From NCBI RefSeq assembly GCF_041200175.1, contig NZ_CP165727.1:992001-1056000 (forward strand): a stretch of DNA of 64,000 bases, written 5' to 3'. The DNA comes from Streptomyces sp. R33. Its GTDB lineage: Bacteria; Actinomycetota; Actinomycetes; Streptomycetales; Streptomycetaceae. This document shows, one piece after another, positions 48,440 to 52,121 of the stretch. The notes under the pieces are model-generated. The model was not told the origin of the DNA, did no database searches, and saw only the letters and a list, made by a program, of their open reading frames with translations. A program made the position numbers and the translations under genes. Position 1 is the stretch's first letter. Every line of letters begins with the position of its first letter.

Positions 48440-49333
48440 TCAGACGCGGTCGGCCGCGATCAGGACGTACTGGAACGAGCCGTCCTTGTACGAGTTGATG
48501 AACGCCTCTTCGATCCCGGTGACCAGGGAGGACGTGGCCCGCAGCTCCCAGTAGGGCAGGGTCGCGGGCGTCAGGTCGATGACGGCCTGCGGTACGAGAC
48601 GGTTGTCGGCCATGGCCCGCATGTACTGCCGGCGCGAGTGGATGTTGCACTCGAAGTGCGCGTTGATCTGGGAGACCCACTTCGAGGGCTGGCCGTAACG
48701 GGGGTTCCAGCAGCCGGTGATGGTCACGTACCGGCCGCCGACGGCGAGGATCCGGGAGTGTTCGGCGAACAGGTCGTGCAGGTCGACGTACATGCTCGAC
48801 TCGTTGTTCCAGGAGGCCGCGGCCTGGCCCGTCTCGAACGGTGTGCTGAGCATGTTGCAGACGCGGGCCCGGACGGAGTCCCCGATGCCGAGTTCGCCGG
48901 CGCGCTGGTTCGCGAAGTCGGCCTGCTTGGCCGAGAGGGTGACGCCCTCGACCTTGCATCCGAACCGCTGGTGGGCCATGACCATCGATCCGCCGCGGCC
49001 GCAGCCTGCGTCCACGAGCGTGTCGCCCTGCCCGATGGGGCCGAGGTGGTCCAGCAGGACGTCGGCCTGCGCCGACTCCAGCCGGTGGAGCTCGGCGATC
49101 AGCTTCTTCTCGTACGCGCTGTCGCCGGTGTCCCCGAGGGCTGCGTGGTCGACGTCACCGAGGCCGTAGTGGTGGTGGTAGAGACCGTCGACGTCGCCGA
49201 GACGCAGGTTCACCGGCCGGGCCTCGTGGTCCCAGTATCGGGCGATGTCACCCTGGTAGGGCGTCGCCGGGGAAGGGATGAACGTGGCGGCGGGGGACAT
49301 GGTGAGCTCGGTGTTGGTCACAGATAAATCCAT
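48440..49333 (-). CDS. mtf: Geranyl diphosphate 2-C-methyltransferase
   Basis: A 297-residue SAM methyltransferase that adds a methyl group at C2 of geranyl diphosphate, giving the substrate for 2-methylisoborneol synthase. I recognise the whole sequence as this family. The SAM motif is VDAGCGRGGSM, and the AASWNNESSMYVDL and TGCWNPRYGQPSKWVSQINA blocks are characteristic. ATG 49333 lies two bases after the synthase stop (TAAGGATG), so translation is coupled. The third codon is then TTA (49325-49327). GTG 49321 is a serious alternative because the homologue I recall from S. coelicolor begins at about that point; then the TTA would be in the leader. Last gene of the shell-synthase-methyltransferase operon. 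Confidence 0.93.
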   Translation of the reverse strand: MDLSVTNTELTMSPAATFIPSPATPYQGDIARYWDHEARPVNLRLGDVDGLYHHHYGLGDVDHAALGDTGDSAYEKKLIAELHRLESAQADVLLDHLGPIGQGDTLVDAGCGRGGSMVMAHQRFGCKVEGVTLSAKQADFANQRAGELGIGDSVRARVCNMLSTPFETGQAAASWNNESSMYVDLHDLFAEHSRILAVGGRYVTITGCWNPRYGQPSKWVSQINAHFECNIHSRRQYMRAMADNRLVPQAVIDLTPATLPYWELRATSSLVTGIEEAFINSYKDGSFQYVLIAADRV

Positions 49334-49335
49334 CC

Positions 49336-50583
49336 TTACCAGAAGTCGGGCAGGCTGTAGCGGTAGGTATTGGTCTGGTGCCAGTGGTGGTTGCCGTCGA
49401 CCCACGCGGCCACGCCCCGAAGGAAGCGCAGCACGCTCGGGACGGGGCAGGCTGCGGCCAGGTCGGCGGCCGCGGCCTCGAACGCGTGCATGAGGTCGTT
49501 GTGGACCTCGACCGCCTTCAGATAGGCATCGCGGACGGAGCAGCCCTCGCGTTCGGCGATCACCACGGGCAGGTTGAGGTGCCGGCCGGGGCTGGCGAGT
49601 TCCTTGGTGTACGAGTACAGGTCGTTGACGATGGTGGTCGCGTTCCCGGCGAGCGCGATGACCCGCTGCATGGCGGGCTGGGCATGCAGGTCCGCCGGGA
49701 GTTCGTAGCCGCCGACGGTGTCGGTGATGGTGGGGCAGGGGCGGAAGTTGTTGAACTGGCGCATCGACAGGTACTCCCACACCTGCGGGACGTAGTCCGT
49801 CTCGGCCCAGGCGGCCTCGGCGAGGTACCCCAGGTGCAGACGGGCCATGTCGTGCCGGAACCGGTCGGCCTGGGAGGCGGTGGCCTCCTGGGCGAAGTAC
49901 TCCATGGCCGACCGGTAGGCGCGCCGCGGCGCGTCCGAGTGGAGGGACTCCGCCCACTCCGGCTGGTACTCCGTCGTGGTGTGGAGGGGGTCGAGTGCGG
50001 TGTGCGCCAGCAGCAGGCGTCCGCCGAGGCCGACGGGCGAGCCCCCGTGGTCCTCGCAGTAGCAGTCGTCGACGACGTTCTCGGCGACCATCAGCCGCGT
50101 GGCGAGCATGAGGTGGTCGATGGTGGGGGCGTCGGGGTGGCAGGCGACCATGTAACGGCCCACGGAGAAGCCGTCGAACTGGTCCTCCCACTCCGGGGGG
50201 TACAGCTCGACCTCGTCCACCGCCCACGCCTTGATCCTGTGGCTGAGCTCCTCGACCCGAACGGGGTCGGGTTCCGGCACCGGGTGGTAGTAGAGACCCG
50301 GGACCGGACGACCCGCCGCCGGGGGCTCCTCCTCGGGCGCAGGCGGCTCCTCGCGCCGGGCCAGGGACAGCCCGGCCGCGCCCAGCCCGCTGGGGCCGCG
50401 CAGGACCCGCTCCAGGGCGGGGCTCGGCGTGGTGACGGGGGCCGAGGCCTGGGCGGGCGGGGCGAACAGGGCGGGCCGGACGCAGCCGACGGCTTCGATG
50501 CCGCGGCCGTGACCGTGCGCCCCGAAGCGGGCCGCGGCTGCAGGGAGACCCGACTGCAGAGGGGAAGGCCCGGGATCGGGCAT
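49336..50583 (-). CDS. tpc: 2-Methylisoborneol synthase, likely encapsulin cargo
   Basis: A 415-residue class I terpene cyclase that turns 2-methylgeranyl diphosphate into the musty volatile 2-methylisoborneol. The metal motif is DDCYCED (residues 172-178) and the NSE motif is NDLYSYTKE (320-328). The first 95-100 residues are disordered, rich in Ala, Pro and Gly, and not part of the fold. They include LRGPSGLGAAGLSL at about 61-74. Disordered N-termini of this type are known as cargo-loading regions for family 2 encapsulins. The shell gene lies just upstream in the same operon. AAGGAG stands seven bases before the ATG. Confidence 0.95.
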   Translation of the reverse strand: MPDPGPSPLQSGLPAAAARFGAHGHGRGIEAVGCVRPALFAPPAQASAPVTTPSPALERVLRGPSGLGAAGLSLARREEPPAPEEEPPAAGRPVPGLYYHPVPEPDPVRVEELSHRIKAWAVDEVELYPPEWEDQFDGFSVGRYMVACHPDAPTIDHLMLATRLMVAENVVDDCYCEDHGGSPVGLGGRLLLAHTALDPLHTTTEYQPEWAESLHSDAPRRAYRSAMEYFAQEATASQADRFRHDMARLHLGYLAEAAWAETDYVPQVWEYLSMRQFNNFRPCPTITDTVGGYELPADLHAQPAMQRVIALAGNATTIVNDLYSYTKELASPGRHLNLPVVIAEREGCSVRDAYLKAVEVHNDLMHAFEAAAADLAAACPVPSVLRFLRGVAAWVDGNHHWHQTNTYRYSLPDFW

Positions 50584-50638
50584 CCGTGACTCCTTGGTGA
50601 GGTGGTTGGGCTGTCCCGGATCCCGGGCATGCCCGGCC

Positions 50639-50694
50639 GGCCCGGGAAGGCCCGGGCCGTGGCCGGTGTGGCTGTCGTGGCTGTCGTGGCTGTC
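50639..50694. repeat. Intercistronic hairpin and 9-base tandem repeat between shell and cargo genes
   Basis: GGCCCGGG (50639-50646) and CCCGGGCC (50651-50658) can form an 8-base-pair hairpin around AAGG. Next to it GTGGCTGTC is repeated three times exactly (50668-50694). Both lie in the 128-base gap between the encapsulin stop and the synthase start. They may reduce read-through or guide RNA processing and so set the ratio of shell to cargo; this is inference. Confidence 0.6.
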
Positions 50695-50711
50695 GTTGCC
50701 GGGCAGGTGCC

Positions 50712-52121
50712 TCAGTCGTGCCTGCGGGCGATCTGCACGTTCTCCAGGACGCCGAGCGCGTCGGGCACCAGGACGGCGGCGGAGTAGTAGGTGGAGACCA
50801 GGTAGGAGATGATCGACCTCTCGTCGATGCCCATGAAGCGCACCGACAGGCCCGGCTCGTACTCCTCCGGCAGACCGGTCTGGCGCAGGCCGATGACGCC
50901 CTGGTTGTCCTCGCCGGTGCGCATCACCAGGATCGAGCTGGTGTTCTCCCTGCTGATCGGGATCTTGTTGCAGGGCAGGATCGGGACTCCGCGCCAGGCC
51001 GGGACCTGCTGTCCGCCGAGGTCGACGTGGTCCGGGTAGAGCCCGCGGGCGTTGAACTCACGCCCGATCGCCGCGATGGTCTTGGGGTGGGCGAGGAAGA
51101 GCTTGGAACCACGGCGGCGGCAGAGCAGCTCGTCGAGGTCGTCCGGGGTGGGCGGGCCGGAGTGGGTCTGGATCCGCTGCTTGAAATCGGCGTTGTGGAG
51201 GAGGCCGAACTCCCGGTTGTTGACCAGCTCGTGCTCCTGGCGCTCGCGCAGCGCCTCGATGGTGAGCCTGAGCTGCTCCTCCGTCTGGTTCATCGGCTCG
51301 TTGTAGAGGTCGGCGACCCTCGTGTGGACCCGCAGCACCGTCTGGGCGATGGAGAGTTCGTACTCGCGCGGGTGGGGCTCGTAGTCGACGAAGGTGCCGG
51401 GCAGCTCGGGTTCGCCGGTGTGGCCGGCGGACATCGCGATCTCGGCCTCGCCGTGCTTGTTCTGCCGCTGGTGCGGGAGCGAGCCGAACCGCTCGACGTG
51501 GGCCTGGAGGTGCGGCGCCGACGAGAGGATGGCGGCGAAGTCCGAGCGGGACAGGGTGAGCAGGGTGCCGGCCGTGGCGGCGGTTGCGGTGTAGTCCCAG
51601 CCCCCGGCACCGTCCAGCAGGGCGTGCTCGCCGAACCGGTCGCCGTCGGCGAGCACGGCGACGGCGATCTCGTCACCGTACTTGCCGACGGAGGTCTGGT
51701 TGACCCGGCCGTGGGCGATCAGGTGGATCTCGTTCGCGGGGGTGCCGCGCTCGACCAGCACCTCACCTGCGCGGAAGTCACGCTGGACGCACCGGCCGGC
51801 GAGCGCGGTCAGCACGTCCATGTCGTCGAAGCCGCGCAGCATGGCGAGTTCGCCGAGTTCGCGGGGGATCACCCGGACCTGGGCGCCGTCCTGGACGAAG
51901 TCGATGCGCCCGTCGCCGACGGTGTAGGTCAGCCGCCGGTTCACCCGGTACGTGCCGCCCTTGGTCTCCACCCAGGGGAGCATCTTCAGCAGCCAGCGGG
52001 AGGTGATCTCCTGCATCTGCGGGGCGGACTTGGTCGTGGTGGCAAGGTTGCGGGCGGCCGCCGTGCCCAGGCTGGTCTGCGGGGGCTCGAGCTGCGCCTC
52101 CGGGCTGGTGTCCACGGTCAT
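50712..52121 (-). CDS. Family 2B encapsulin shell protein with cyclic-nucleotide-binding-like domain
   Basis: A 469-residue protein of the EshA-like group, formerly annotated as a Crp-family cyclic-nucleotide-binding protein. Residues about 35-90 and 215-469 form the HK97-type shell fold; typical blocks are RWLLKMLPWVETKGGTYRVN and VRFMGIDERSIISYLVSTYY near the end. Residues about 92-212 are an inserted CNB-like domain with FGEHALL at 163-169. The expected Arg-Ala that holds a cyclic phosphate is replaced by YTATA, so the usual cAMP contact seems lost. Family 2B encapsulins form icosahedral protein compartments. AAGGAGAG precedes ATG 52121. First gene of the 2-MIB operon, and its cargo gene follows. 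Confidence 0.95.
   Translation of the reverse strand: MTVDTSPEAQLEPPQTSLGTAAARNLATTTKSAPQMQEITSRWLLKMLPWVETKGGTYRVNRRLTYTVGDGRIDFVQDGAQVRVIPRELGELAMLRGFDDMDVLTALAGRCVQRDFRAGEVLVERGTPANEIHLIAHGRVNQTSVGKYGDEIAVAVLADGDRFGEHALLDGAGGWDYTATAATAGTLLTLSRSDFAAILSSAPHLQAHVERFGSLPHQRQNKHGEAEIAMSAGHTGEPELPGTFVDYEPHPREYELSIAQTVLRVHTRVADLYNEPMNQTEEQLRLTIEALRERQEHELVNNREFGLLHNADFKQRIQTHSGPPTPDDLDELLCRRRGSKLFLAHPKTIAAIGREFNARGLYPDHVDLGGQQVPAWRGVPILPCNKIPISRENTSSILVMRTGEDNQGVIGLRQTGLPEEYEPGLSVRFMGIDERSIISYLVSTYYSAAVLVPDALGVLENVQIARRHD

What the first reader, a model, noticed from the sequence alone, without database searches (positions are those of the whole stretch)
48440..52121. Complete family 2B encapsulin locus with terpene cargo and substrate-making enzyme
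Seen: one operon on the minus strand encodes an EshA-like HK97-fold shell with a CNB-like insert, then 2-methylisoborneol synthase, then GPP C-methyltransferase. Established: family 2B encapsulins co-occur with 2-MIB synthases, and cargo is loaded through disordered N-termini. Inference: 2-MIB is made inside a protein compartment, while the methyltransferase, which has no disordered extension, probably works outside and feeds 2-methyl-GPP through the shell. The system fits a known class, but its physiological reason is still unclear.
Basis: partly seen in the sequence, partly recalled or inferred. Interest (0 to 1): 0.9.

Follow-up and report, generated by a model that had tools for sequence, protein, structure and literature searches.

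The report
Odour-enzyme nanocage operon, shell often lost
This stretch of a Streptomyces genome carries a known kind of three-gene operon for the earthy odour 2-methylisoborneol: a virus-like protein shell, the odour synthase that is predicted to sit inside it, and the enzyme predicted to make its substrate; some related strains have lost the shell gene but keep the synthase intact, so the shell is likely helpful rather than essential.

Summary
The class is published, so the locus is a new member of a known kind; packing of 2-MIBS inside and the methyltransferase outside are inferred here. In 13 of 124 comparable loci the shell gene is gone or a relic (7 changes by parsimony, weakly supported). 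The synthase is intact in all 13, the methyltransferase in 12 and the operon's upstream element in 12; dN/dS is low in the pairs tested. No 2-MIB-type shell was found elsewhere in those genomes. Yet the GPxGLGT motif, published as a possible shell-targeting sequence, is kept in 13 of 13 shell-less synthases, and its core varies less than the linker (1 of 40 against 33 of 130 residues, p = 0.0006; a cut chosen afterwards). The shell is probably dispensable for the pathway, and the motif probably has a use beyond its own shell: another 2B shell, or another role. A resemblance of the synthase N-terminus to the shell's N-arm is suggestive only.

The parts
50712..52121 (-). Family 2B encapsulin shell protein (EshA-like), 469 aa
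   Evidence: NF041163 783 bits, Pfam SrpI-like and cNMP_binding; PDB 9bhu 855 bits over residues 1-466
52026..52079 (-). Shell N-arm QTSLGTAAARNLATTTKS (residues 15-32), similar in the related 2B shells compared
   Evidence: sequence; arms of relatives
51522..51782 (-). cNMP-binding-fold insert of the shell (residues 114-200)
   Evidence: Pfam PF00027 59.8 bits
50724..51473 (-). HK97-type SrpI-like domain (residues 217-466)
   Evidence: Pfam PF19307 471 bits
49336..50583 (-). 2-methylisoborneol synthase, 415 aa
   Evidence: NF041167 503 bits; PDB 3v1v/3v1x; DDCYCED and NDLYSYTKE blocks, nearly all positions invariant in 58 sequences
50377..50397 (-). GPSGLGA: the GPxGLGT motif (residues 63-69) in the disordered N-terminus, published as possible targeting sequence
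   Evidence: G63, P64, G66, G68 invariant in 58 aligned synthases; motif published in PMC8346489 (passage)
50521..50556 (-). Second N-terminal element QSGLPAAAARFG (residues 10-21), resembles the shell N-arm
   Evidence: suggestive only
48440..49333 (-). Geranyl diphosphate 2-C-methyltransferase, 297 aa
   Evidence: NF041943 476 bits; PDB 4f84
52275..52293 (-). Upstream operon element GATCACTGCATCGAGGTAA, about 171 bases before the shell start; likely part of the promoter region
   Evidence: the pattern, drawn by eye from these loci, has 53 matches in the 1.65 Mb of 124 loci, equal to the 41 + 12 loci in which it lies upstream of the operon

Best explanation
The minus-strand operon 52121-48440 encodes a family 2B encapsulin shell, a 2-methylisoborneol synthase that is predicted to be packed inside it through its disordered N-terminus, and a GPP C-methyltransferase that likely works outside and would supply 2-methyl-GPP through the shell's pores. 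The three genes lie in one direction (128 bases between shell and synthase, 2 between synthase and methyltransferase) behind a conserved upstream element, so they are probably one transcript, as reported for the S. venezuelae eshA-mibA-mibB operon. The shell is likely an accessory: 13 of 124 comparable loci lack an intact one and still keep the synthase. What the shell gains the cell is not shown.
For: Family assignments above curated cut-offs for all three proteins. Shell 855 bits to 9bhu over residues 1-466 of 469; PMC12407261 (passage) names 9BHU as the S. griseus family 2B encapsulin. Residues 1-85 of the synthase have pLDDT under 50 in a model of mean pLDDT 67, yet G63, P64, G66 and G68 are invariant in 58 sequences. 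108 of 111 shell-bearing loci keep a GPxGLGT-like motif by a loose pattern. No methyltransferase among 122 has a cargo-like motif. Operon and BldC control in S. venezuelae: PMC6428758 passage. Dispensability: 13 of 124 loci without an intact shell; pairwise dN/dS in 8 overlapping shell-less pairs 0.075-0.238 for the synthase and 0.091-0.228 for the methyltransferase, against 0.089-0.188 (8 of 10 pairs gave a value) and 0.113-0.266 (10 pairs) in shell-bearing pairs.
Against: Nothing here shows assembly, loading or flux. The GPxGLGT motif survives in 13 of 13 shell-less loci, which is not expected if its only use is this shell. Other groups of related cyclases beside 2B shells have other N-terminal motifs or none recognised, and a few shell-bearing synthases have very short N-termini, though with the motif (L034, L180, L213, L203).
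Confidence: 0.88

Rival explanations
1. The shell is essential for making or tolerating 2-MIB, and the shell-less loci are decaying pathways on their way out.
For: One shell-less locus (L160) also shows no methyltransferase and no upstream element; shell-less loci are a minority, 13 of 124.
Against: All 13 keep the catalytic blocks and the synthase C-terminus, 12 of 13 the methyltransferase, 12 of 13 the upstream element, and dN/dS is about as low as in shell-bearing pairs. PMC6428758 (passage) reports eshA as not required for 2-MIB.
Confidence: 0.08
2. In shell-less strains the synthase is still packed, into a different 2B shell of the same cell; the motif is read by 2B shells in general.
For: All 13 shell-less genomes hold at least one other 2B-like shell; GPxGLGT-like motifs occur in three cyclase groups with different shells; the motif core changed at 1 of 40 residues against 33 of 130 in the linker in four shell-less sister pairs, Fisher p 0.0006.
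Against: In G238 the only other shells found are a pair beside what reads as a xylulose kinase, no cyclase-type shell, and its synthase still has the motif (L051). The sister pairs may have lost the shell after they split, in which case part of the conservation dates from before. Over the 21-residue region the codon-level ratio does not differ from the linker.
Confidence: 0.35
3. The GPxGLGT segment has a job in the enzyme itself (stability, assembly, substrate handling) and only incidentally serves loading.
For: Persistence in 13 of 13 shell-less loci, including G238, where no cyclase-type shell was found.
Against: The model leaves residues 1-85 below pLDDT 50, so no confident docking on the catalytic domain (single chain, modest confidence). 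A related group of cyclases makes do with a different short motif, LPGPP, in 33 of 34.
Confidence: 0.35

Closest known systems
Streptomyces griseus EshA/Sg Enc with 2-MIBS (PDB 9bhu, 9bhv, 9bi0; Andreas and Giessen 2024, Nat Commun 15:9715)
   Same: Full-length shell match, 855 bits; same cargo type (recalled).
   Different: A different species; here no structure or loading has been measured. The 2024 paper is not held: its title was seen in a reference list, its contents and the S. griseus gene order are recalled.
S. venezuelae eshA-mibA-mibB operon (PMC6428758, passages seen)
   Same: Shell, synthase and methyltransferase in one operon.
   Different: There BldC binds the promoter; whether BldC acts here is untested.
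S. lydicus two-component 2B shell (PMC12407261; xylulose-kinase type)
   Same: Same shell family with cNMP-fold insert.
   Different: Two shell proteins; the window locus has one.
Family 2A SrpI with cysteine desulfurase (PMC8049743, passages seen; PDB 6x8m)
   Same: HK97-type domain, cargo with disordered N-terminus.
   Different: 2A is defined by the absence of the cNMP insert (PMC8346489 passage); other cargo and other conserved motifs.

Membership tests
Family 2B encapsulin shell | HK97/SrpI-like domain over curated cut-off | tested here: met
   PF19307 471 bits, NF041163 783 bits
Family 2B encapsulin shell | cNMP-binding-fold insert (separates 2B from 2A) | tested here: met
   PF00027 59.8 bits; NF041162 (2A) stays below its cut-off, 364.9 of 380 bits
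Family 2B encapsulin shell | Self-assembly into a closed shell | not testable with these tools
   inferred from the 9bhu relative
2-MIBS encapsulin cargo | 2-MIBS-type cyclase beside a 2B shell | tested here: met
   NF041167 503 bits, 128 bases downstream of the shell
2-MIBS encapsulin cargo | Disordered N-terminus with GPxGLGT-type motif | tested here: met
   GPSGLGA at 63-69 (last residue A instead of T); pLDDT under 50 for 1-85
2-MIBS encapsulin cargo | Synthase found inside the shell | not testable with these tools
   needs particle purification
GPP 2-C-methyltransferase | NCBIfam equivalog over cut-off | tested here: met
   NF041943 475.6 bits, cut-off 400
GPP 2-C-methyltransferase as co-cargo | Carries a cargo-like motif in its N-terminus | tested here: not met
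   0 of 122

The most novel reading that the evidence does not exclude
The GPxGLGT tag of 2-MIB synthase outlives its own shell: strains that deleted the cognate shell keep the tag under selection because it either docks the enzyme in other 2B shells of the cell or does a second, shell-independent job. Either way the one-tag, one-shell picture is wrong, and natural shell-deleted Streptomyces provide the test.
Probability: 0.5. Interest if true: 0.6.

Novelty: new member of a known kind. Interest (0 to 1): 0.42.

Why it matters
It is unclear why a volatile-making enzyme is caged. The locus itself adds a member, but its relatives include natural shell-deletion strains, some in named culture-collection species, in which the synthase and mostly the methyltransferase and upstream element are kept. 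They allow a direct comparison of 2-MIB output, timing and cell fitness with and without a shell, and they raise the question what the targeting motif is for once the shell is gone.

Tried and rejected
N-arm mimicry. The synthase N-terminus QSSLPAAAARFG resembles the shell arm QSSLGTAAARNL. With a 12-residue profile of 2-MIB-type shell arms, the three synthases P0002, P0025 and P0054 outscore all 491 background proteins and 0 of 2000 shuffles reach them; the window's own synthase (QSGLPAAAARFG) is equalled or exceeded by 4 of 491 and 3 of 2000 shuffles; GPTGLGT cyclases of another group by 1 to 22 of 491. But with a profile trained on the arms of another shell clade the synthases do not stand out (11-residue core: 59 to 66 of 491 background proteins score as high as the better ones, 301 of 491 as high as the window's). 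Eight combinations of profile and length were tried. The element does not track the shell: 75 of 111 shell-bearing against 7 of 13 shell-less loci pass the threshold, and the independent-pairs test gives p = 1. Kept as a lead only.

Codon-level selection on the 21-residue motif region was not distinct from the linker (pN/pS 0.47 against 0.58 in shell-less pairs, 0.45 against 0.55 in shell-bearing pairs); only the 10-residue core at the amino-acid level differed, a cut chosen.

Upstream SpoIIE-type phosphatase (52377-53504) as part of the system: rejected, found in 5 of 127 loci. The literature search for shell loss was uninformative: its 15 listed papers show no occurrence of 'encapsulin'.

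Rows dropped: identical synthase ORFs were counted once, leaving 127 loci (synthase at least 65% identical to the window's); 3 (L129, L158, L179) cut by contig ends were dropped before the count of 13 in 124. The loci came from 120 stretches chosen from the matches listed (not all of those listed, and that list was itself cut; 40 of the 120 were taken from the lower-scoring group), the best 80 of 287 relatives, and the window.
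Full report
Observation. The three genes are present as described. The shell reads from ATG 52121 to 50712, the synthase from 50583 to 49336, the methyltransferase from ATG 49333 (or GTG 49321) to 48440. Each passes the curated cut-off of its NCBIfam model and has a solved close relative.

What it is. The shell is a family 2B encapsulin: SrpI-like HK97 domain plus a cNMP-fold insert, 855 bits to 9bhu over residues 1-466. PMC12407261 (discussion part 1 and passages) names 9BHU as the S. 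griseus family 2B shell and says that the insert does not bind cyclic nucleotides and sits above the two-fold pores. PMC8346489 (passages) describes 2-MIBS-like cyclases with C-methyltransferases in 2B operons and proposes GPTGLGT as a possible targeting sequence. The direct paper on 2-MIB in shells (Andreas and Giessen 2024) is not held; I saw only its title in a reference list. The system is therefore known.

In the same genome. Four SrpI-like shells are encoded: the window's, two divergent shell-plus-cyclase units in L013 and one shell beside a polyprenyl transferase in L014 (the names of the L013 and L014 partners rest on their sequence and on terpene-synthase matches, not on a family search of the transferase). 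Across 245 genomes of the order, 238 have a match over the cut-off to the 2B shell model and 133 to the 2-MIBS-type cargo model.

Comparison of loci. From 120 stretches picked out of the matches, the 80 named loci and the window, 127 distinct 2-MIB loci were kept. Three cut by contig ends were dropped. Of the remaining 124, 111 have a shell of at least 400 aligned residues next to the synthase and 13 do not. In the shell-less loci the upstream DNA shows different remains: in L032 shell start and end with the middle missing; fragments in L151 and L100; start and end pieces in L145; a start with the N-arm and then a stop in L152; a short start-to-end remnant in L199; in L183 and L201 the shell's first codons run in frame into the synthase; in L153 and L194 the leader runs straight to the synthase. 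L051, L160 and L167 are less clear: at most a few codons of the shell could be recognised. These readings of remains are mine, by eye from the translations. Maximum parsimony on a synthase tree gives 7 changes of shell state, but well-supported branches force only 1; the differing remains make a single event unlikely, though a shared first step is not excluded within the sister groups.

The rest of the pathway is kept. All 13 retain the catalytic blocks and the synthase end, 12 of 13 a methyltransferase. The element GATCACTGCATCGAGGTAA (window 52293-52275) lies a median 171 bases before the shell start in the 41 of 111 shell-bearing loci where the pattern matches, and is found in 12 of 13 shell-less loci; the 1.65 Mb of loci hold 53 matches, equal to the 41 plus 12. 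The pattern was drawn from these loci, and 70 of 111 shell-bearing loci do not match it. Pairwise dN/dS in shell-less pairs is about as low as in shell-bearing pairs. Full-length other shells there are at most 68% identical, except one of 75% that sits beside a two-domain cyclase-like ORF; shorter fragments of up to 75% are relics or parts of split copies. This agrees with the statement in PMC6428758 (passage) that eshA is not required for 2-MIB.

The motif outlives the shell. GP[STN]GLGT is present in 13 of 13 shell-less synthases, a looser form in 108 of 111 shell-bearing ones. In four shell-less sister pairs its 10-residue core differs at 1 of 40 positions, the linker behind it at 33 of 130 and the stretch before it at 50 of 233 (Fisher core against linker p = 0.0006). 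Against this: over the 21-residue region the codon-level ratio is not distinct from the linker, the 10-residue cut was made afterwards, and if the pairs lost the shell after splitting, part of the conservation is older. All 13 shell-less genomes retain another 2B-like shell; in G238 only a shell pair beside what reads as a xylulose kinase (the kinase is named from its sequence and the published association, not from a family search). So loading into another shell and a shell-independent role both remain open. A model of the synthase (58 sequences, mean pLDDT 67) leaves residues 1-85 below pLDDT 50.

Methyltransferase. Its N-terminal stretch is short and variable; 0 of 122 carry a cargo-like motif, in line with a place outside the shell, which stays inferred.

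Related cyclases. Beside GPxGLGT, another group of cyclases with methyltransferase has a short N-terminus with LPGPP (33 of 34; 31 of 34 with a shell), and six further loci (L060, L062, L064, L065, L067, L069) have neither motif. Which products they make is not known from these calls.

Novelty. None of the literature listings showed a title or abstract on natural shell loss in 2-MIB loci, but the key 2024 paper is not held and most subscription journals are missing, so I do not claim it is unpublished.

Noticed in passing
L013:7536-15741 (own genome C1 1843536-1851741): Two divergent shell-plus-terpene-cyclase units, one with a single-domain cyclase, one with a two-domain geosmin-type cyclase, with a regulator-like ORF between them.
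   Followed up: partly
window 28583-29632 (+): Another terpene synthase (349 aa), followed downstream by what reads as a cytochrome P450; outside the finding.
   Followed up: no
L183 and L201 (synthase start): The first codons of the lost shell gene run in frame into the synthase, so the synthase now appears to begin at the shell's start site.
   Followed up: partly
L055-L094, among them L060, L062, L064, L065, L067, L069: Other shell-cyclase-methyltransferase loci with different N-terminal motifs: an LPGPP type, and six loci with gene order shell, methyltransferase, cyclase and no known motif.
   Followed up: partly
window 52377-53504 (-): SpoIIE-type phosphatase gene upstream of the operon, found in 5 of 127 loci, all close relatives.
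   Followed up: yes
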